NCBI GenBank assembly: GCA_949361645.1
Contig: OX442422.1
Coordinates: forward strand, 2,879,563-2,943,562
DNA from: Spongilla lacustris
Lineage: Eukaryota > Porifera > Demospongiae > Spongillida > Spongillidae
Reading direction: 5' to 3'
Length of the DNA: 64,000 bases
Shown: one piece after another, positions 3,213 to 60,210 of the stretch
How the letters are laid out: each line of letters begins with the position of its first letter
Position numbering within the stretch: position 1 is the stretch's first letter
The notes under the pieces: model-generated
Database searches by the model: none
Told to the model about the DNA's origin: nothing
Seen by the model: the letters and a program-made list of their open reading frames with translations, nothing else
Program-made: the position numbers and the translations under genes

Positions 3213-4711
3213 CAGTGGAAACCATCACACTTGCTCCTATAATTTTTTTGTACTGTTATTTTGTTCACTTGAATATATTTCAATAACAATGAGATCAAAT
3301 GAAAATCTGACAAGGCAGGTATAGTGTACAACTATTTTTCAATATATACTGAAAGTTAAAAAGCATCACGTGACTATTTACTTTTGTTATTAACACTTGT
3401 TGTGACCCCAGTACAAAAAAAATTGTGAGCATAATTCCTTCTCCTGTAGGCAATAGATCTTGACCATATTCGCAATATATCTAAAGAACAAGCATTAGCA
3501 ACCTTTGGCCGAGTCGGTTTTTAAGTCCGGTAAATAGTTACGGTATTATCGAGCTAGATATGCGTTTTTAGCTCGTAAAAGCTTAGCGATGCTATTTCGT
3601 AGTACGCTCTCACTGGACTGCTATATTTCGCTTCCGAGTCGTCACATGTTAGATCTATCGCGAAATCGTACTTGGGAGGCAATAGACCCTTCTTTGCCGT
3701 TAAAAAAGTGCCATCAGAGCTGAGTACCTGAAAACCTCCGCCATATCGCGATGAATTACATTTGAAACGTCATCATTGCATCATTTTGTATCGTGAATAT
3801 ATTTATAATGTGACGTATCGGCAGAGATAATATAGCATCAAATTGGGCAGGTTACAAGAAACGTCAAAAAGCAAGAGGCAACTCTAAAGCTGGAAGGGAA
3901 GCGTACCCAATTAGCTATTTGGAAGCTGCCATCTAGGATTCGAAGCTTTGGGTGATAGAACGCTAGCCTTGGCGAATGTCTTGATGGTCCATAAAGCTTC
4001 CCAATTTGATGCTACTGATTTACTAAACGTTCGCCGTGAGTGGCTGCAAGATGCAGCATCGCTAGGTTAAGAACCATTTTCACAATCCCTTGCATCCATT
4101 CGTATTATCGTCACATTATAAATATATTCACGATACAAAATGACGAAATGATGACGTTTCAAATGTAATTCATCGCGATATGGCGGAGGTTTTCAGGTAC
4201 TCAGCTCTGATGGCACTTTTTTAACGGCAAAGAAGGGTCTATTGCCTCCCAAGTACGATTTCGCGATAGATCTAACATGTGACGACTCGGAAGCGAAATA
4301 TAGCAGTCCAGTGAGAGCGTACTACGAAATAGCATCGCTAAGCTTTTACGAGCTAAAAACGCATACCTAGCTCGATAATACCGTAACTATTTACCGGACT
4401 TAAAAACCGACTCGGCCAAAGGTTGCTAATGCTTGTTCTTTAGATGCATTGCGAATTTGGTCAAGATCTATTGCCTACAGGAGGAGGAATTATGTTCACA
4501 ATTTTTTTTGTACTGGGGTCACAACAAGTGTTAATAACAAAAGTAAATAGTCACGTGATGCTTTTTAACTTTCAGTATATATTGAAAAATAGTTGTACAC
4601 TATACCTGCGTTGTCAGATTTCCATTTGATCTCATTGTTATTGAAATATATTCAAGTGAACAAAATAACAGTACAAAAAAATTATAGGAGCAAGTGTGAT
4701 GGTTTCCACTG
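3213..4711. mobile_element. Foldback TIR element, 603-bp arms, TA target duplication
   Basis: The left end starts CAGTGGAAACCATCACAC and the right end is its reverse complement, each flanked by TA (3211-3212 and 4712-4713). The arms 3213-3815 and 4109-4711 are almost perfect inverted repeats. The 293-bp loop (3816-4108) holds a second inverted pair, TAGCATCAAATTGGG at 3833 and CCCAATTTGATGCTA at 4000. There is no transposase frame. The TA duplication and CAGTG ends are typical of non-autonomous Tc1/mariner (pogo-like) elements. Superfamily assignment is inference from the ends only. Confidence 0.9.
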
Positions 4712-36581: not shown

Positions 36582-36857
36582 ATGGCAAACAAGCCATTCC
36601 TACTGCCGGAAACTTTCAGCGGAGAGTCTGGGACGAAATGGGACGAATGGATAAACCATTTTGAAAGCTGTGCGGACGTGAACAACTGGACTAAGGATGA
36701 AGATAGATTGAAATGGGTACGCGTGCGCCTGGTTGGTAAGGCTCAGACGGCTTTTCGGAGGCTTGGAGAGGATGAGCGAACAGATTACAGTAAGTGCGTT
36801 GGTGCATTGAAACGCCGCTTTGATCCAGATAGCAAGCGAACGCTTAAGGTGGGTTGA
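36582..36857 (+). pseudogene. Gag N-terminal fragment of the Ty3/gypsy element
   Basis: The ATG at 36582 lies just inside the element. It encodes PFLLPETFSGESGTKWDEWI then LKWVRVRLVGKAQTAFRRL and CVGALKRRFDPDS, the capsid-like start typical of Ty3/gypsy Gag proteins. After about 85 residues the frame runs across the internal deletion and stops at 36855. The capsid C-terminal half and nucleocapsid are absent. Confidence 0.75.
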
Positions 36858-37836
36858 GGTTTATGCTATTCCGAACCAGGAGGCATTAACTGTGGCCAAA
36901 ATGTTGGTGGATGAAATGTTCTGTCGCTTTTCTCCCCCTGAGCAGTTACACTCCGATCAAGGAAGGCAATTTGAGGCAGATTTGTTGAAGGAAGTCTGCA
37001 CCCTGCTTCAGATACACAAAACCCGTACAACGGCCTACCATCCTCATTGTAATGGGTTAGTAGAGAGGTTCAATAGAACATTGTTAGACATGCTATCTAC
37101 AACGGTTAAGGATCATAAGATGGATTGGGACCAGTGTATACGGAGGGTGTGTTTAGCATACAACTCGAGTGTGCATGCATCCACAGGATACTCCCCTTTT
37201 TATTTGATGTATGGTCGTCAAGTAAACCTACCTGTTGACCTGATGTATGGCTCAACCCCACACGAAGCCTGCACCTTGGGTGATTATGCACATACGTTGC
37301 GGAACAATCTCACAGAGGCATATGTGTTGGCTCGAAGGAAAGGTATTACTGAGCACAACCGACAAAAGGCTTTGTACGATGTCAAAGTGCATGGTGCTCC
37401 GTACCAAGTAGGTGACTGGGTATGGCTACATTCACCAGCGGTGCCTCGGGGTCAATGTAGGAAATTACATCATCCCTGGACTGGGCCTTTTAAAGTGATT
37501 GAGTGCATTGGGGAATGTGACTATAAGATTAAAAGCAAGAATGGAAAAATGATTAGAGTGGTGCACTTTGATCGTCTTAAGCCATTTGTACCAGGTACAA
37601 GAACTGAGACGTTCCTGGGACCACCACCAGAAAATCCAGACGAAAATGAGGCACTTTTGGAGTTTGCACCTGTGGGAAGCAACATAGAAGTCCTTGATGG
37701 AATAGGGGAGCAGGTACCTCAGGAGTTACTACCACATGAAGAACCTGCAGAAGATGAGGCTGCCCATGCTGATCAACCTGCAGAAGTACAGCACAGGTAT
37801 CCCCAGCGAACACGAAGACCACCCGATAGATACTGA
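36847..37836 (+). pseudogene. Integrase C-terminal part of the Ty3/gypsy element
   Basis: Starts mid-domain at RWVEVYAIPNQEALTVAKML. It contains the second catalytic Asp in LHSDQGRQFEADLL and the Glu in NGLVERFNRTLLDML, but the zinc-binding HHCC region and first catalytic Asp are missing. Downstream is a chromodomain-less integrase tail (APYQVGDWVWLHSPAVPRG, HHPWTGPFKVIECIG, VVHFDRLKPFVPG), an acidic stretch and the end RYPQRTRRPPDRY, followed by the purine tract and LTR. The remaining frame is intact over about 330 codons. Confidence 0.85.
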
Positions 37837-43263: not shown

Positions 43264-43946
43264 TCTCAGCCACAATGAGACAAGTACTACTGGAGAACTC
43301 AGAACAAGCTTGGTTAAAACTTTTCATGCTCCCTAAGTGTGTCCTACCTTCACGTAAACGCAGAGGTCGCCATGATGTGCCTACTTCAGTAGACTTTCTA
43401 TGTAGTTTATGGTCCAAAAATGAGTTTGGGACTCTCTGGAACCTTGCCAAAAACAACCAAAAGGAAAACCGTCAACCACATGACCAGGCAGCTAAACACA
43501 ACCGAGATCTGATTGCTCATGCTATCTCATTGGGAAGAGCTGGCTTGTTCGGTAAAGCATGCAAAGTTCTGGAGTCGAATGGGTTAGCCCCCAACAACGA
43601 TGCCACCTGGCAATTGCTGCAGTCTAAGCACCCAAGCTGTCCTCCCCCTGTAGCCCCTAATGTGAACACTATTCCTATTTCTGTTGGACCAGGCTTTGAT
43701 ATCTTGTCTACTCTTCGCTCTTTCCCAAAAGGCACTGCAGCGGGTCCCTCTGGGCTTCGCATACAACATTTGCTGGATGCTGCTCTTATCTCACTCGCAA
43801 CACCCATATGTGCTACTCTCAGGGACATTGTAAATCTCCTTGCTTCAGGAAAAGCACCTCCAATGGTGGCTAGGATTTTGGCCGGAGGAACATTAATTGC
43901 ACTAAATAAACTGAAAGATGGTAGCCCCCCAGATATTAGACCCATA
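43264..43946 (+). CDS. Retrotransposon ORF, linker and start of RT
   Basis: Continues the ORF after the TIR insertion: LPKCVLPSRKRRGRHDVP, NKPALP-antisense region free of stops, ISLGRAGLFGKACKVLES, then RSFPKGTAAGPSGLRIQHLL and NLLASGKAPPMVARILAGG, which is the N-terminal (fingers) signature of non-LTR RTs. It ends PPDIRPIEWENR and a stop at 43962-43964. Homology demands a one-base shift at about 43947 to continue as GESLRRLTGKC. Confidence 0.75.
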
Positions 43947-43948
43947 GA

Positions 43949-45379
43949 GTGGGAGAATCGTTAAGGAGGCTCACTGGAAAGTGCATTTGTGCTCTGGTCA
44001 AGGACAAAGCTTCTGATCTTTTCCAGCCTCTTCAACTGGGAGTTGCCTGTAGTTCAGGCTCGGAAAAGATTATCCACGGCCTGAGAAAAAGCATTGAGGA
44101 CCATTGGATGGAAGAGGACTTTGTGGTCTTCAAAATAGATATGCAGAACGCTTTTAACCTTGTTTCAAGACAAGCAGTTCTTGATGAATGTGCCACATCC
44201 TTTCCTGAACTTCTGCCCTGGGTTACATGGTGCTATGGTACACACCCCCTGCTGTGGCACCAGCTTGGTCATCTTTCGTCAGAGACTGGAGTGCAGCAGG
44301 GTGACCCCCTTGGTCCATTGCTTTTTTCTTTGGTACTCCAAAGGCTGATATCAAGCATAGACGCTGATGATGATTGCATACAAGTGCTCTATCAGGCTTG
44401 GTATCTTGATGACGGGGTCCTCACTGGAAGGCGCTCAGCTGTGTTACGGGCACTTTCACTCATTGAAGAGCTGGGTCCTTCTCTGGGCATTCACATCAAC
44501 TTGACAAAATGTGAGCTCTTCAGTCACTTTGGTAATTCAATGTTCCCACCTGCAGTGAAGTTTTCACACCATCCTAACCTTGAAATTCTGGGTGCCCCGA
44601 TAGGTGATTACCTGTATTGTTCAAAGTTCATTGCTGGGAAGTGTGCCGATGCCAGGAAATTTCTCTCTTCCTTGGTAGATGTAGCAGCAGTTGACCCACA
44701 TGTGGCCTTGTCTCTCTTGCGTTTGTGTGGCAGCTATTGCAGATTGGTCCACCTTGCTAGGGCCACTCCATCAAGTCTGGCAGGTTCTTTGAAGCTGTTT
44801 GATGAAGAAGTCAGAAGGTGCTTCTCATCTTGCTTTTCCATCGACACAACGGACACAGCCTGGACACAGGCCCAGCTTAGCTTAGGTTTTGGGGGCCTTG
44901 GTCTGCGCTCTTTATCCCACCACTCATGTGCAGCATTTATAGCTTCATTGTCAACATCTGGTTGTAGCAATGCTGATAATGTACATCTGCAACAGGCAAT
45001 CATTCAGTTCAATGATCAGGTCTCTACATCAGATGCAATCGCAGCAGAAGGAGTATCATCAACATCAGTTACTCAGCGTTCTCTGTCTAAGAAATTGGAA
45101 TGCCACCTTTTTAATTTTTTGTTAGGGGCTTCCTCTATGGCAGACAGAGCTCGCCTATTATCTGTTTCCGCTTCTCATGCTGCATCATGGTTGTCCGTAA
45201 CTCCATCTCTGGCCTTGGGTTTGCACCTTGAACCTAATGAGCTTTATGCCTCTATAAGGTGGTGGTTAGGGTTGGACACCTCTGGTGGTTCTCTGTGTCC
45301 TGTCTGCTCTCAGAAAGGCCTGGACCTACTTGGCCACCATGCTACCACATGTTCTCATGGAGGTGATGTAGTGACCTGA
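43949..45379 (+). CDS. Reverse transcriptase core of the retrotransposon
   Basis: An RNA-directed DNA polymerase of the non-LTR class. In the 476-residue open stretch, motif A is FKIDMQNAFN (Asp about residue 64), motif B GVQQGDPLGPLLFSL (about 114-128) and motif C YLDDG (about 152-156). Thumb-like sequence follows (PHVALSLLRLCGSYCRLVHL, SLGFGGLGLRSLSHHS). The C-terminal CCHC finger CPVCSQKGLDLLGHHATTC lies close to the stop. The stop at 45377-45379 sits where the family has Arg (VVT-R-HNLLRD), so it is a nonsense mutation and not the real end. The YLDD and GD motifs are intact. Confidence 0.85.
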   Translation: MGESLRRLTGKCICALVKDKASDLFQPLQLGVACSSGSEKIIHGLRKSIEDHWMEEDFVVFKIDMQNAFNLVSRQAVLDECATSFPELLPWVTWCYGTHPLLWHQLGHLSSETGVQQGDPLGPLLFSLVLQRLISSIDADDDCIQVLYQAWYLDDGVLTGRRSAVLRALSLIEELGPSLGIHINLTKCELFSHFGNSMFPPAVKFSHHPNLEILGAPIGDYLYCSKFIAGKCADARKFLSSLVDVAAVDPHVALSLLRLCGSYCRLVHLARATPSSLAGSLKLFDEEVRRCFSSCFSIDTTDTAWTQAQLSLGFGGLGLRSLSHHSCAAFIASLSTSGCSNADNVHLQQAIIQFNDQVSTSDAIAAEGVSSTSVTQRSLSKKLECHLFNFLLGASSMADRARLLSVSASHAASWLSVTPSLALGLHLEPNELYASIRWWLGLDTSGGSLCPVCSQKGLDLLGHHATTCSHGGDVVT

Positions 45380-45873: not shown

Positions 45874-47030
45874 AGATGTTACATGTACATATACAGTGCT
45901 CATATTGAACTCTTTAGTGTAAGTTTTCTGTATGTCATATAAATTATGTATTAGTTGAATTATATGTAAAAAAAAATCAAAGTGATGTAGGGTAGATATA
46001 TAGTTAGCATTTTGTGTACATTGTGTTTAGTCTAGTTGTATATGTTTATATATCAGTGTATTTGTGCATGTCCATTTATCCAATATTATTTATTAATTTC
46101 AAAAAATAATAATGCGTGTAATATAAAAATCTGCTAATGCATCCATTAGGACTTGAATATTTAAAACTGATTACTTTCTCAGTGTTTGTACACACTTGCA
46201 GTGTAAATGCCCTTCACACAGAATGTGATAGCATTGTGATGGTTCCAGCTTTGCTCCATTTGATTCATATTGCTGAGTATGCGTTAGATATGTTTTCATT
46301 GCTTGGTTGTGGGTACCCGCCTCACAGTGTGCTATGAAATTGCACATCTCTGCGTGTATATATACATGTGTAGTCCCTATATAAAATGGACGCTATATGA
46401 ATAAATATGGAGAGGATAGGGACCTAGGTGATAATTGTAATGAGATTCACTCAAAAATGGCGTGTTTTCTAAGCTTCAACGTTTGCAAGCAGAATTTTGA
46501 CGATAAAATTAACTGTTACGTTGTAAACATAGGTGTCTATGGTGCAATAACCATCGCTCGGTATAAAAATCAATGTACTGTCGTGTATAACGCCCACTGT
46601 GCAAAGCAGCATGCTAAACGCTTTTCGACCTAAACAAACGTGTCTCCCATGAAAACACACAAAGTATTTCCTGGGTTTGAAATATGACTCGGCCAAACGT
46701 TTGGCAGGATTGTTTTTCTCATACAGTATATACCAAATTTTGCTGCCTCAGAGCTGAGAAATATGCTACAAATCCGTTTTTTGGACTGGGGACACTTAAA
46801 AACAAAAACAAACAGACGTGTTAGTCACGCGACACTTACTTATTTCGGTACTTGTTTACAAATGTTTGGTCAACAACACTGTGTTGTCAGATTTTCAATA
46901 CTGCATACAGTTAATGTTAAAAAATCAAGCTAACATTAAAACACACCCAAAAAAAATTTACGACAAGTATCACGATTTCCACTGTACTTGTGGTTTTGTC
47001 CCTACATGTACATGTCCTATACATGATTAT
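45874..47030. other. AT-rich spacer
   Basis: The start is likely the 3' untranslated part of retrotransposon copy 5 (A-run at 45969). The rest, including short frames at 46137-46696, shows no domain or element ends that I can defend. Confidence 0.4.
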
Positions 47031-47337
47031 AGGTATGGATTACCACAACGAACAAGTTCCCCTACATTGTAGAGTGTGTGGGCAGAGGCTGATCGAGCAA
47101 GTACAAGGCAAAGAAAAGAACAGCTATGTTTGCAAAAGAATTTTCAGCTGAGCCTGAAAATAGCTTTTAACATCGACACATCTGGGGATGATGTCAATAC
47201 ACACCCTGAGATGTTCTGCATGAAATGCAAGCTGAGCATGGAGAGAACCATCTTTGCCATATCAGAGGGAGTGCATCACAAATGTACAGGGATGCCATTC
47301 AGTTGAGTGGCAAAAACATACAGATGAAGAATGCAAG

Positions 47338-47390
47338 GTAAGGGGTATACATTAATTTGCTCTAAGTAAACATATGACATCATGGTGTAG
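47338..47390 (+). other. 53-bp intron in the RAG1-like gene
   Basis: Donor AAG|GTAAGG and acceptor GGTGTAG|GTA join EECK to VCEH in phase 0 and complete a C-x-V-C zinc pair. It contains in-frame stops, so it would have to be removed. Confidence 0.7.
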
Positions 47391-50056
47391 GTATGTGAGC
47401 ACTTCCATGCATGCTCAAGTGGGCCATCACTTGATGGAGGCCGTCAGGCAGGCATCACACCTAATGCACTTATAGCTCATTGTGAGAAGATTGCCCCTCC
47501 TCAAGTTCTCCACAGTAGTGAGCCTAGCCCACCTTTGGCAAGTGCTAACAACCAGTCAATGCTGAATGAGCTGAAGTGTGCACTGTGCTCCAACATCCTC
47601 TCCCAGCCACTGAAACTGCAGTGTGGTGCACTGGTGTGCTCCAAATGCCTCCACTGAGGAGTGTATAGCAGCATATGGTGCTGTGAACTGTCTCTGCTGT
47701 TCAGAACATGGTCCCCTGGCTTTATCCCATGTCAGACCAGCATCAAGTGTGATTCTCCTGCTGCTGTCGGATGTTCTGGAGCACTGTACAGACTGCAGCA
47801 GGGACATTAAGGCTGTTGATTATGAAGGGCATGAGTGTGCACCAACACTTACACCTGGGAAGGAGAAGCAAGCAGCAGGATTGCTGAAGAGGGCCATCTC
47901 TACCAGTCCTGACAAACACCAGAGCAAACCAGGAAACCACAGCTGCCTGCTCAAGGACTGTGAGATGAGATGTTTAGAAATGCAGAGGATCCGCACCGTT
48001 GTCAGTGGTGGAGAAGCATCTGCCCTTATCCAAAACAAGGTCCTCATCCTCAGTAATCAAGAGAGGCAATCTTTGTTGGATAAGGCAGGCATCTCATCAT
48101 CCATTGAGATCGGGGCAGCTGAGGTATTGGCGATTAAGGCTGAGCTTGCCCTACCTTTGTACAAACTGAGGTCTAAGGTGGTATGTCACAACATACAGCA
48201 AACGCACAATTCTAACTCACTGGTGTTTCAGATGGCTCAAAGCGTCTGGAATCTCTCTGGCTGGCGAGGAAAGGATGCGCCACATTTCTAGCCAAATTGT
48301 GGGTGAGAATCTGAAAGGAGAGATGGCCCTATTTTCTTTTCCACTTCCATCTGGGGGAGAGTAAATCAAAGGAGCTCCTTTGGTATACATTCCACATCTG
48401 GTGGATAAAGTTGTGCAGCTCTTAGATTGGAATGAAATGTAAGACAGTGGCATAAAAGGTTGTTAAACATGGTTTCGGTTTCAGGACTGGCAGGCTTACA
48501 TGGCATGAGGGGTTTATACCAGCCAGTGAGATGTGGTTGAAGATCGGAGGGGACAAGGGAGGTGGAGCATTCAAAATGAGCTTCCAAATTGTGAACATTG
48601 CCGCACCCAATTCAGTCCATAACATCATGTATTCAGCTCCTTTGCAGCTGGCAACATTGTTACTAACCTCCATGTGGCACTTGATCGCTTTAAGGACCAG
48701 GTAGAACACCTACATGGAATGAAGTGGAGGCGAGAGCTCTATACCTTAAATCTTCTTATAGTACACAAGTGCTATAAATTACAGGCAGTACACAGTAATA
48801 GTGTTCATATGTGGAGACTATGAGTTCTTGTCAAAGATGTATGGCATGTCAGGAGCCAGTGGTATGTACTAGTGGTGTACTAAATGCACATGTAAATGAT
48901 GACCATGCAATATAGGGTGTAACCCTTGCCTATACTGCAAAATTCAAAGCGAGCATATGGTTATACCCCTATCCGTTCGAGGGCACGCCACAGAAAGGTC
49001 ACTTGAAGATATGTGTGCTGACCACCAGTGTTAGATCTCATCAGGCAGTATTAGAAAAGATGCACAGAAGTTCTTTAACTGCATTTCAGTGCCTATCTTC
49101 GACATCCCCATTTCACAGGTAAATGAATCTGATATAGTGATAATTTCTGTTAACAAGCACCATGCAGGCCTGCCCACCTGGCCTCCACATAATGTTGGGG
49201 ATCTTCACTAAGATGTTCCATTTGCTAGAAGCTTTATGCTGTCAGCTGGACTTTGAACTGGCACGTCAAACTACTAATTTCGACTCTTCCAACTTTTCCA
49301 AGTACAGTCAGGCACTGCAGAGGCTTCCAGTGCTCCAAGCAGACCTTGAAAACACCCAGCATTCCCAGGAAGTGTTGCAGCAGGTAGCAACATATGTGGC
49401 CTTAGTTCATGGGGAGAAAAACCCTCTAGCTGCGGATCTAACAATCGGCTGAAAAAAAGTAATCAGTGAAGGCACTTGTATGTAATGATCCAACACAATT
49501 TCTAATAAGCTTATGTCCACTGTAGGAGGTAGAAGTGGCCAAATGCACAGCACTTGTGAAAAAAAGGCTATTCTGAAAAAGAAGGGCCCTTTGTCAAGGC
49601 ACTCGACACTGTGTTGCAATCGTTTGGTGTGCAACGACAGCAGTATTTTGGAGGGGCATTTATTGGCAACCATGTTCATATGGCATTGAAGGTAAACTGT
49701 GCTATGCATGGGCCTATGAATAATTCACACTGAAAAAATTTCTCCGGTATCCAACATCCAGACTCTCTGCATGTCAATATCACAATTTCCAATTTCATCA
49801 CTGCATTCTCCTAGCTCATATGGAAAATGTCACAATATATTTGATGGGAACTTCGTTGACGAAGCACAAGCACCAGGTTGATAAACAATGTTTAGTGTAC
49901 ATGTAGCTAGGGTTCACCATGTGCCTCAGGCCAACTAAATAGGCTATTCAAGAGTTCATGGCCTTTTTCAGAACCACGTTTCCTGAGGCAACAGTCCCAA
50001 TTAAAATGTACCTGTTGGAGGACCATACTCTGTGATGGGTAAATTGCAACCATGTT

Positions 50057-50209
50057 GGCTATGACCCCCTTGGTGAACAGGGGGTAGAGTGTAGGCTTTG
50101 GCCTCCTGGGTGAACAGGGGGCCGAGTGTTGGCTTTGGCCTCCTGGGTGAACACGGGGCCGAGTGTTGCAATTGGCTTTGGCCTCCTGGGTGAACAGGGG
50201 GCAGAGTCT
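50057..50209 (+). repeat. Fourfold duplication over the catalytic-Glu motif of the RAG1-like gene
   Basis: The block GGCTTTGGCCTCCTGGGTGA with ACAGGGGGCCGAGTGTT repeats at about 50057 (diverged), 50094, 50131 and 50174, with spacing of 37, 37 and 43 bp. Only the last copy connects in frame to SIHARFNQL. Because the spacing is not a multiple of three, the earlier copies break the frame. Confidence 0.85.
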
Positions 50210-50529
50210 ATTCATGCCAGGTTTAATCAACTTGGATTGGCATTTGCGCCAATCAAAGACAGAGTGCAGAACCTCAAATGCATAGTTAAAGAGCACTTAT
50301 TAAGTATTGAACCACAACTGGTAGCTGCCATTCCCCCTCCAGCTAAGAGAGCAATAAACGGCCAGATTGTCCTGCATGATTTCAACTTCTGAGATTCAGG
50401 TGGTTTGGTGAGTATACTGTGTGAATTTAGTATGTGCAAAACAGGCATATATATATATTCGATGCAATGAAGGGGGAGGAGACATGGCTTTCTTCCTATA
50501 CTAGTACTGTTAGTCGGATTATGGTGGAA

Positions 50530-51375
50530 TTCTCCCTGTACTGTTGGCCTTCTCCCGGATCGTTTATTGCCCGTCTCCTTATACTGTTGGTCTTCTTCCT
50601 GTAGTGTTAGACTGGTGGCCTTCTCCCTGTACTGTTGGCCTTCTCCCTGTAGGACTTCTCCCTACACTGGTGGTCTTCTCCCTATACTGGTGGCCTTCTC
50701 CTTATACTGGTAGCCTTCTCCCTATACTGGTGGCCTTCTCCCTATGCTGTTGGCCTTCTCCATATACTGGTAGCCTTCTCCATATACTGGTGGCATTCTC
50801 CCTATGCTGGTGGCCTTCTCCCTATGCTGGTGACCTTCTCTTTATACTGGTGGCCTCTCCTTATAATAAGCTGTACTTATACTGTTGGCCTTCTCCCTGT
50901 TGGACTTCTCCCTATACTGGTGGCCTTCTCCCTATACCGGCTGTTGGCCTTCTCCCTATACTGGTGGCATTCTCCCTATACTGGTGGCCTTCTCCCTGTA
51001 CTGTTGGCCTGCTACTATACTGTTGGCATTCTCCATATACTGGTGCGGGCCTTCTCCCTATACTTGTGGACTTCTCCCTATGCTGGTGGCCTTCTCCTAA
51101 TACTGTTGGCCTTCTCCATATACTGTTGGCCTTAACTGGTTGCCTTCTTCCTATACTGGTGGCCTTCTCCCTATGCTGGTGGCCTTCTCTTCATAATAAG
51201 CTGCACTTATACTGTTAGCTTTCTCCCTATACTGTTCGCATTAACTATCTATATACTGTTGGCCTTAATTATCTATATACTGTTGGCCTTCTCCCTATAC
51301 TTTTGGCCTTTTCCCTATACTGTTGGCTTTCTCCCTGTACTGTTGGCTTTCTCCCTATACTGTTGGCTTTCTCCC
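50530..51375 (+). repeat. About 20-bp minisatellite
   Basis: Dozens of units of TATACTGGTGGCCTTCTCCC with variants TGTTGGCC, TGCTGGTGG and longer spacers. A few more units lie at 51597-51655. The open frame of about 220 codons across it is Trp/Tyr/Pro/Ser-periodic and is not a gene. Confidence 0.93.
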
Positions 51376-58859: not shown

Positions 58860-59480
58860 TCAGAGCAGACGCCGAGCAACGCCCTGAAGTACACTCCTGG
58901 GGGTGCGGACGTAGAGCATGTACGCCGAGCTTTGCCACCTACCCAGCGTCTTAATCAAACAGTCAGGAATACCCCGGATCGCTGCGGTGGCAGCTGCTCC
59001 TATGCGAAAACTGTGGCCGGAGTACAAATGCGCGTCAATTCCCGCCACTGCTAACGCCGAACGCAACGCAGCAACAAACCGGGGACGCGTTAGGCAGCGA
59101 CCATCTCCAAAAACAAAAAGCGGACCAGGAGCTGGGCCTCGTCTTGACATATAATCCAGCACTGCCGAGACTGGACAGATCTCCTGACTCCCACGACCGA
59201 TCACGAGGACGACCCCCTTTTGGAACGGGTCAGTCTTGGAGGCTTTCAACGTTACGCGAAGAGTCGATGGCTCGAGGTGGGAGTCGACTGCTACAGCACC
59301 AAAGCACAGGTGCACTCCCGCATCGAATGAGGTGTCTGAAGGGACGACGACTTCTCCCGATCGCAAGAAACCGAAGAAACACAGACAGCATTGATGTCGA
59401 AAACCTGTCCGGGCCTCTCGACCACACCTGCTTGAGTGCTCCCAGTAAGTAATGGCTCCGACACCAATAAAAAAAATCAT
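58860..59480 (-). CDS. Tyrosine recombinase catalytic domain of the DIRS-like element
   Basis: Encodes the C-terminal catalytic domain of a DIRS-group tyrosine recombinase, which integrates a circular DNA copy. Visible motifs: LCFFGFLRSGEVVVPSD (first catalytic Arg), KASKTDPFQKG (the Lys region), YSGHSFRIGAAATAA (His-x2-Arg), IKTLGRWQSSAYMLYVRTP (Tyr nucleophile). The N-terminal SAM-like domain is missing. The first 35 residues overlap the end of RT in another frame through an 8-T run, which marks a deletion or frameshift junction. The catalytic residues look intact. Confidence 0.85.
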   Translation of the reverse strand: MIFFIGVGAITYWEHSSRCGREARTGFRHQCCLCFFGFLRSGEVVVPSDTSFDAGVHLCFGAVAVDSHLEPSTLRVTLKASKTDPFQKGVVLVIGRGSQEICPVSAVLDYMSRRGPAPGPLFVFGDGRCLTRPRFVAALRSALAVAGIDAHLYSGHSFRIGAAATAAIRGIPDCLIKTLGRWQSSAYMLYVRTPRSVLQGVARRLL

Positions 59481-60210
59481 CGAGGTAGTGGAAGAGATGT
59501 CCTACCCCGTTGGCCCTCGCAATCCATTCCACAGCATCGGCCACCGCAGTGAAGATTTTGGGAGCCGACCTCAAACCGAACGGCAGAACCGTGTCCACGA
59601 ATAACCTTCCCTCCCAACACATGCCGAGCAGGAACCTGTCATCATGATGAACAGGTATCGTTCGGTATGCGCTTCTAATGTCGACCTTCGAAAGAAACGC
59701 ACCTTTGCCCAACTGCACTGCCACCTTAGCCACTACGTCCACTGTAACGTACTCCAATGAGCACAACGTGGGGTCTATGCCGTCATTCACACTGCTCCCT
59801 TCGGGGGAGGACAGGTCCACAATCAACCGCCATTTCCCGGACGATCCCTTTGGAACCAGACCCATTGGACTACACTGCACAATAGGGAACGCCTCGATAT
59901 CAAGAGGTCCAATTACCCTGCCGAGGCTACGTTCCTCGTCCAAGTATGAAGAGACAAGATTGCTATCCTGGCGGGTAGAGGCCATATTGCCCCTTGCCCT
60001 CACGCAAGAATAGCGAACGTGGTCGAAGCCTAGCCGAAACCCAAAACACAGACCCTCCATAATGAACGCACAAATTCCTTATCTGGGTGCCGTACCAGGT
60101 GATGGGACCACGCTGCCTGCTTCATCGGCGTTCTGATGAGTCGCAAAAAACTCAGGAGGATTCCAAGGCGACTGATGTCTACAACTGTCCAACGCCAGGA
60201 GATGGGATGT
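59435..60210 (-). CDS. Reverse transcriptase of the DIRS-like element, truncated
   Basis: An RNA-directed DNA polymerase related to Ty3/DIRS RTs. Order: FRLGFDH, then DEERSLGRVIGPLD, CSPMGLVPKGSSGKWRLIVD, FLSKVDIRSAYRTIPVHHDD (motif A), LPFGLRSAPKIFTAVADAV (motif B) and LFHYLDDFF (motif C, YLDD) at about 59470-59490. Directly after YLDD the frame meets the recombinase region; thumb, connection and RNase H are lost. Upstream of the main frame (60060-60210) related coding (AAWSHHLVRHPDKEFVR) lies in another frame, so there is also a frameshift near 60060. Confidence 0.85.

What the first reader, a model, noticed from the sequence alone, without database searches (positions are those of the whole stretch)
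47035..50392. RAG1-like gene in a probable sponge genome: zinc/RING N-terminus linked to a DDE-like core
Ordered motifs match the RAG1 N-terminus (CRVCG; F-ID-T...DVNTHPEMFC-x2-C; EWQKHTDEEC; RING-like CALC...C). Downstream blocks are compatible with the RAG1/Transib catalytic core: MWLKIGGDKGG (D), CGDYEFLSKMYGMSGASG resembling the second-Asp region, and LLGEQGAESIHARFN resembling the Glu region. Finding N-terminal and core-like parts in one locus bears on whether RAG1's two halves were joined before vertebrates. The copy is dead here, but splice phases and family constraint are still readable.
Basis: partly seen in the sequence, partly recalled or inferred. Interest (0 to 1): 0.8.

Follow-up and report, generated by a model that had tools for sequence, protein, structure and literature searches.

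The report
Dead sponge Chapaev transposon, RAG1-like
This is a broken copy of a jumping gene in what looks like a freshwater-sponge genome; its family's protein has the same head, ring finger and cutting core, in the same order, as RAG1, the enzyme that builds our antibodies, but it belongs to a related and already known transposon group called Chapaev.

Summary

One result goes beyond that paper. N-terminus and core share a history inside Chapaev (Mantel r 0.92). Yet RAG1's N-terminus scores like another Chapaev's (93.5 bits versus 35.9-118.9), while its core scores 7.1 versus 400-543. That fits an exchanged N-terminal module better than plain co-inheritance; saturation or rate differences are not excluded.

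The parts
46428..46987 (.). about 560-bp dispersed repeat that abuts the gene and stands where the element's 5' part should be; not part of the transposon
   Evidence: 33 of the 53 DNA matches (93-95% identical, 32 of them nearly full length; only 40 of 957 candidates were scored, so a lower bound); the 5' junction alignment shows the window departing from L029, L030 and L031 at about 46985
47035..50392 (+). dead transposase gene of a Chapaev-group transposon (exon remnants and introns)
47035..47337 (+). RAG1-type N-terminal zinc domain ('Chapa' domain / PF12560 region), first exon; one frame break after SYVCK and one before VEWQKH
   Evidence: PF12560 E 0.0048, below cut-off; family profile to RAG1 N-terminal chain 21wb E 4e-14
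47338..47390 (+). presumed 53-bp intron (GT...AG), phase 0
   Evidence: read and the protein match; not tested with transcripts
47571..47700 (+). RING finger (CALC ... CLCC), frame broken at about 47652
   Evidence: PF15227 E 1.4e-4, below cut-off; family profile to 1rmd (RAG1 RING/zinc-finger chain) E 6.3e-14
47782..47838 (+). zinc finger after the RING (HCTDC...HEC), at the position of RAG1's finger after its RING
   Evidence: family profile aligned with RAG1 up to residue 383; conserved Cys/His columns
47916..47917 (+). point of a 108-bp deletion relative to six other copies; shared with the sister copy L029
48456..48704 (+). DUF1280 core piece with the first catalytic Asp (48552-48554)
   Evidence: PF06918 E 5.7e-9, 36.3 bits against a cut-off of 25
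48816..48938 (+). second catalytic Asp (48816-48818) and, after an intron, the C-x2-C zinc motif (48927-48938); spliced, the Cys lie 19 and 22 residues after the Asp
   Evidence: Asp in 28 of 28, Cys in 27 of 28 and 27 of 27 relatives with a residue there
50009..50026 (+). place of the H-x4-H zinc motif, first His replaced by Tyr in this copy
   Evidence: His in 28 of 28 relatives with a residue there, both columns
50053..50207 (+). four 37-bp tandem copies expanding the region of the catalytic Glu
50192..50206 (+). EQGAE: candidate catalytic Glu (50204-50206) at the place of RAG1 E962
   Evidence: hhalign register; Glu in 28 of 28 relatives with a residue there

Best explanation
The locus is a dead, 5'-truncated copy of an autonomous cut-and-paste DNA transposon of the Chapaev group in a freshwater sponge. 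Working relatives would encode one transposase of about 850-1,050 residues: a RAG1-type N-terminal zinc domain, a RING plus zinc finger, then a DDE core of RAG1 fold with C-x2-C and H-x4-H zinc motifs. Shown: the domain order, the fold (by prediction), the conserved catalytic and zinc residues, the CACGG...CCGTG ends and the 4-bp target duplications of relatives. Inferred from RAG1/Transib: pairing of the two ends, cutting at CAC/GTG through a hairpin step, staggered joining 4 bp apart; dimerisation and ubiquitin-ligase activity of the N-terminus. This copy itself cannot act.
Against: The window copy has lost its 5' end and no 3' end was found, so its own duplication cannot be read; no end motif in the window beats chance. 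The window's own pieces reach Pfam's cut-off only for DUF1280. Core-to-RAG1 similarity by sequence is very weak: hhalign probability 2-3%, E about 0.02, although in catalytic register. 39 of the 84 N-terminal matches have no listed core within 3.5 kb. The N-terminal stretches of both models are of low confidence. The end pairs were picked by the CACGG pattern, so that all 13 carry it is partly by construction; the 4-bp match was not part of the pattern.
Confidence: 0.94

Rival explanations
1. A true RAG1-like (RAGL/TransibSU) or Transib gene.
For: Same domain order and fold as RAG1; same spacing from the second Asp to the C-x2-C motif.
Against: No PF12940 match in nine relatives at E<=10; 4-bp, not 5-bp, duplications in relatives; RAG1's core scores 7.1 bits with a clade-A Chapaev core profile that gives seven other Chapaevs 400-543; little room for a RAG2-like gene in the typical 4.55-kb elements (inferred from the ends and the protein span 3393-6647 of L014). 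The only PF12940 match found in the genome is another locus, below cut-off, a Transib relative.
Confidence: 0.03
2. A domesticated host gene instead of a transposon.
For: Spliced, RING-bearing, and present among predicted E. muelleri gene models.
Against: Many near-identical dispersed copies with terminal repeats and target duplications; the window copy is a pseudogene with siblings in the same genome.
Confidence: 0.02
3. A Chapaev core that recently captured an unrelated host RING/zinc protein, so that the RAG1 likeness of the N-terminus is only generic RING similarity.
For: The profiles also match TRIM, RNF125 and TRAF6 RING proteins.
Against: RAG1 is the best of all PDB matches and the match runs from residue 101 to 383, across the non-RING zinc domain; that domain alone gives E 4e-14 with chain 21wb and 61.6 bits with RAG1. 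N-terminal and core trees agree: Mantel r 0.92, 10 shared splits of 20, none in conflict at support 0.9 on both sides; also within clade A alone, r 0.87.
Confidence: 0.01

Closest known systems
Chapaev transposons with Chapa domain and RING (Kapitonov and Koonin 2015, PMC4411706: lancelet, sea anemone and others)
   Same: Core (DUF1280), N-terminal Chapa zinc domain, RING, CAC/GTG ends, 4-bp duplications
   Different: Host is a sponge; the word sponge does not occur in that paper's main text and no sponge is in its species list (section 2, part 2). The window copy is dead and truncated
Vertebrate RAG1 / invertebrate RAG1L (RAGL, ProtoRAG)
   Same: Order N-terminal zinc domain - RING - zinc finger - DDE core; predicted core fold; D, D, E and C-x2-C / H-x4-H zinc motifs in the same order
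   Different: 4-bp instead of 5-bp duplications in relatives; core barely alike in sequence; no PF12940 match; little room for a RAG2-like partner in the typical relatives
Transib (HzTransib, 6pqx)
   Different: Transib lacks the N-terminal zinc/RING half (PMC4411706); a separate Transib relative, with none of the 84 PF12560 matches within 30 kb, exists in this genome
N-RAG-TP of Aplysia (known here only through passages of PMC8355894)
   Same: RAG1 N-terminal-like sequence in a mobile element
   Different: That account describes it as N-terminal sequence only; here the same module is joined to a Chapaev core. Whether N-RAG-TP is itself a Chapaev piece was not tested

Membership tests
Chapaev (CMC/CMCT clade) | DUF1280-type DDE transposase core | tested here: met
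   PF06918 E 5.7e-9, above cut-off, in the window
Chapaev (CMC/CMCT clade) | 5'-CAC ... GTG-3' terminal inverted repeats | tested here: met
   Met in relatives: alignment of copies of one family ends at CACGG and CCGTG; 13 of 20 fetched loci gave a pair of such ends, 10-13 of 15 end bases alike (the pairs were found with that pattern). Sibling L030 of the window family has the CACGGTTGTTT 5' end. The window copy has lost its ends
Chapaev (CMC/CMCT clade) | 3- to 4-bp target site duplication | tested here: met
   Met in relatives: perfect 4-bp duplication in 12 of 13 elements; not testable for the window copy
[quoted passage not shown]
   C-x2-C: 27 of 28 and 27 of 27; H-x4-H: 28 of 28 in both columns, of relatives with a residue there; first His lost in the window copy
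Chapaev with Chapa + RING (subgroup) | Chapa zinc domain followed by a RING, upstream of the core | tested here: met
   45 of 84 N-terminal matches of the genome have a core downstream
RAG1 / RAGL | RAG1 recombinase core by sequence profile (PF12940) | tested here: not met
   no match at E<=10 in nine relatives
RAG1 / RAGL / Transib | 5-bp target site duplication | tested here: not met
   0 of 13 related elements; not testable for the window copy
RAG1 / RAGL | N-terminal zinc motifs and RING/zinc-finger domain | tested here: met
   family profile to RAG1 101-383, E 8.7e-34
RAG1 / RAGL | RAG1 core fold | tested here: met
RAGL | convergent RAG2-like partner gene | tested here: inconclusive
   typical relatives are 4.55 kb between their ends with the transposase filling most of it; the genome-wide search for PF03089 did not complete
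Transib | solitary core without N-terminal zinc/RING half | tested here: not met
   N-terminal half present

The most novel reading that the evidence does not exclude
RAG1 is a chimera whose two halves have different ages relative to Chapaev. Its N-terminal half (zinc domain, RING, zinc finger) is a Chapaev-type module, split from Chapaev N-termini about when the deep Chapaev clades split from one another, and was placed in front of a Transib-type core, by exchange between co-resident transposons or by fusion. This would argue against the published parsimony view that N-terminus and core were inherited together from the common ancestor of Chapaev and Transib. Support: within Chapaev the N-terminus diverges faster than the core (mean identity 23.0% against 30.1% between clades A and B), yet RAG1's N-terminus is as close to clade A as clade B's is (23.9% against 23.0%; 93.5 bits, above 5 of 7 other Chapaevs), while its core is far outside (7.1 bits against 400-543; 12-15% identity in the structural alignments to RAG1). 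This sponge genome holds both a Transib relative and many such Chapaevs. Against: N-terminal identity may have reached a floor set by zinc ligands; rates may differ; with the clade-B zinc-domain profile RAG1 beats only 2 of 18 Chapaevs; and RAG1 does not nest inside a Chapaev clade in the N-terminal tree (weak supports, one RAG1 sequence).
Probability: 0.27. Interest if true: 0.75.

Novelty: new member of a known kind. Interest (0 to 1): 0.45.

Why it matters
Where RAG1's two halves came from is an open question, with two stories in print: joint descent from an old transposon (PMC4411706), or fusion of a Transib core with a separate N-terminal element (PMC8355894). This sponge carries the whole order zinc domain - RING - RAG1-fold core in many Chapaev elements, some apparently recent, and the same architecture appears in a hemichordate protein. 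The two sponge sets seen here fall in separate deep Chapaev clades (one set is Calcarea if the recalled Sycon gene prefix is right). So the fused form looks old within animals, and the comparison of N-terminal with core divergence becomes a direct test between the two stories. The locus itself is an ordinary dead transposon.

Tried and rejected
Tried and dropped: phmmer of two single window pieces against PDB gave nothing useful. A second protein search with alignment A1 returned 3 proteins, all from Ptychodera; candidates were capped. A search with P0047 did better (32 proteins, 15 with both PF12560 and PF06918). Looking for the element's ends inside the window gave 7 matches against 8.01 expected by chance, so none is claimed. 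dN/dS between families was not used as proof of selection, because dS is saturated in most pairs between families. hhalign of the family against mouse RAG1 core is reported only as weak support. Families not listed by VIA-align are not taken as excluded.

Considered and rejected: a contaminant or assembly artefact (many dispersed copies in a 248.6-Mb assembly); a RAG1 gene proper; a host gene.

Not answered: a search of this genome for RAG2 (PF03089).

Full report
OBSERVATION. The conceptual gene runs on the + strand from ATG 47035 to 50392. Pfam finds PF12560 (RAG1 importin binding) at E 0.0048 and RING models at E 1.4e-4 or weaker, all below cut-off, and PF06918 (DUF1280) at 5.7e-9, above cut-off (10 pieces given). 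The read-through (16 pieces) finds 68 proteins. Most bear names of the freshwater sponge Ephydatia muelleri (NCBI names; the eukprot prefix 'Em' is taken as the same species, recalled). The best is 69% identical over 99% of the query. There are also hemichordate (Ptychodera flava), lancelet and unnamed metagenome proteins. Its L013-L020 element family is 77.7-85.4% identical to the E. muelleri protein P0003, so the host is probably a close relative of E. muelleri (inference).

STATE OF THE COPY. It is dead. A guided comparison shows 9 stops among 807 aligned codons, against 0 of 866 in relative L014 and 0-7 in the other nine loci compared (introns may contribute). The reading frame changes several times inside conserved domains. 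The first zinc histidine is a tyrosine. Four 37-bp repeats expand the region of the catalytic Glu. The closest relative lies about 164 kb away on the same contig, start to start (C9:2762562-2766016, 93% identical). It shares a 108-bp deletion at 47916/47917, present in neither L030 nor five more copies, and the 20-bp minisatellite downstream, so the two probably come from one already broken copy (inference). At about 46985 the window copy breaks off against a dispersed repeat of about 560 bp. Sibling L030 continues upstream about 430 bp to a CACGGTTGTTT end.

WHAT THE ELEMENT IS. In 20 fetched 10-kb loci the two ends of 13 elements could be paired; for the other 7 (L009-L012, L021-L023) no pair was found, so they were not tested. 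The boundaries were first seen where copies of one family stop aligning, and then sought with the CACGG pattern, so that the 13 pairs carry it is partly by construction. 12 have a perfect 4-bp target duplication, the other (L015) matches at 3 of 4; none has a 3-, 5- or 6-bp duplication; all 13 5' flanks differ. Eight of them form one family of mostly 4.55 kb (L013 and L016 are longer), 98.2-99.6% identical in the pairs listed, which suggests recent insertion. These are Chapaev hallmarks: 3- to 4-bp duplications and CAC/GTG ends (PMC4079192, passages). DUF1280 is the Chapaev transposase and shares a clade with RAG1 in an RNase H-fold classification (PMC3985635, passages). PF06918 has 116 matches in the genome and PF12560 has 84 at E<=0.1. 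Of the 84, 45 have a core match 0.9-2.0 kb downstream on the same strand, 0 upstream, 0 on the opposite strand; at E<=0.001 it is 15 of 22. 39 of 84 have no listed core; fragments, decay and limits of the search are likely reasons, not tested.

N-TERMINUS. A profile of 16 relatives matches mouse RAG1 144-373 at E 8.1e-19. A profile of 29 relatives matches RAG1 101-383 at E 8.7e-34, ahead of every other PDB chain in the ranked list (best 60 of 229 shown), RING proteins included. The N-terminal zinc chain 21wb alone gives 4e-14 and the RING/zinc-finger chain 1rmd 6.3e-14. Of nine relatives scanned with Pfam, five exceed the PF12560 cut-off (P0004, P0009, P0020, P0046, P0047); P0001 falls below it, and P0003, P0023 and P0052, whose gene models lack part or all of that region, have no match.

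IN THE SAME GENOME. PF12940 finds one place, below cut-off (C2:13146440, E 0.018). Its open frame matches HzTransib at 4.8e-12, ahead of RAG1L and RAG1 (0.029 and weaker). It is a Transib relative; none of the 84 PF12560 matches lies within 30 kb. So both kinds of element live in this sponge.

HISTORY. For 23 relatives with both halves, N-terminal and core trees agree: Mantel r 0.92, p 0.0001, 10 shared splits of 20, no conflict where both supports reach 0.9. This is not only the contrast between clades: within clade A (16) r is 0.87, p 0.0001, within clade B (5) 0.94, p 0.016. The halves have travelled together within Chapaev. Proteins with names beginning scpid (P0072, P0081, P0087; prefix recalled as the calcareous sponge Sycon ciliatum) fall in another clade than the freshwater-sponge ones, so two deep Chapaev lineages with this architecture occur in sponges if that recall is right. 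The comparison with RAG1 is discordant. A profile of 16 clade-A N-termini gives RAG1 93.5 bits, above 5 of the 7 other Chapaevs (35.9-118.9). The matching core profile gives RAG1 7.1 bits and the same seven 400-543. With five clade-B members, RAG1 gets 68.4 bits for the N-terminus, above 8 of 18 others (16.7-103.4), and no reported score for the core (others 313-505). By domain: zinc domain alone, clade A, RAG1 61.6 bits, above 4 of 6; clade B, 34.5 bits, above only 2 of 18. RING, clade A, 44.8 bits, above 6 of 6; clade B, 38.2 bits, above 15 of 17. Mean N-terminal identity: A-B 23.0%, RAG1-A 23.9%, RAG1-B 20.8%; without Cys/His 19.1, 20.4 and 16.9%. Core identity A-B is 30.1%; RAG1 rows of the VIA alignments show 12-15%. 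In the N-terminal tree RAG1 joins between clade A and the rest on a branch of 1.93 with weak supports (66.9/76 and 55.5/63), so it is not nested. Only one RAG1 sequence was used. Saturation, stronger constraint on zinc domains, or a fast RAG1/Transib core could also give this pattern.

LITERATURE AND NOVELTY. PMC4411706 (passages and section 2, part 2) describes Chapa plus RING in two Chapaev subgroups and infers that Chapa, RING and core were fused in the common ancestor of Chapaev and Transib; 'sponge' does not occur in its main text. PMC8355894 (passages) argues for fusion of a Transib with an N-terminal-only element. PMC7204232 (passages) reports RAG1L-RAG2L pairs in molluscs, a nemertean and cnidarians, with N-terminal zinc motifs well conserved in most; 'sponge' and 'Porifera' do not occur in its main text. 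PMC12730594 (passages) groups Chapaev, Transib and RAG1 by the C(2)C and H(3-4)H motifs. Searches for sponges with Chapaev or RAG1 elements (12, 5, 3, 0 and 1 papers) listed no paper whose title or start of abstract reports them; apart from PMC4298943 (passages) they were seen as listings only, in an open-licence library that lacks most subscription journals. Verdict: a new member of a known kind, with a comparison that may bear on RAG1's origin.

Noticed in passing
G000:C2:13146440-13146691 (L033:822-1433, minus strand): A Transib-like transposase fragment (HzTransib E 4.8e-12; PF12940 20 bits, below cut-off) in the same sponge genome, with none of the 84 PF12560 matches within 30 kb.
   Followed up: partly
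46428-46987: A dispersed repeat of about 560 bp with at least 33 other matches at 93-95% identity, abutting the dead gene where the transposon's 5' part should be; its kind is unknown.
   Followed up: no
43940-45376: A reverse transcriptase open frame (RVT_1, E 6.3e-15) of a retroelement just upstream of the finding.
   Followed up: no
36811-37833 and 59233-60078: Further retroelement remnants: an integrase (rve, Integrase_p58_C) and, on the minus strand, a reverse transcriptase (RVT_1 E 3.7e-9).
   Followed up: no
50611-51375: A 20-bp minisatellite of about 39 copies (consensus ACTGTTGGCCTTCTCCCTAT) just downstream of the gene, shared with the sister copy at C9:2762562-2766016.
   Followed up: partly
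L009-L011 (about 3700-4030), L012, L024: Chapaev copies whose three best printed N-terminal matches cover only the RING (L009-L011) or that have no N-terminal match at all (L012, L024): the N-terminal modules may be lost in some families or copies.
   Followed up: no
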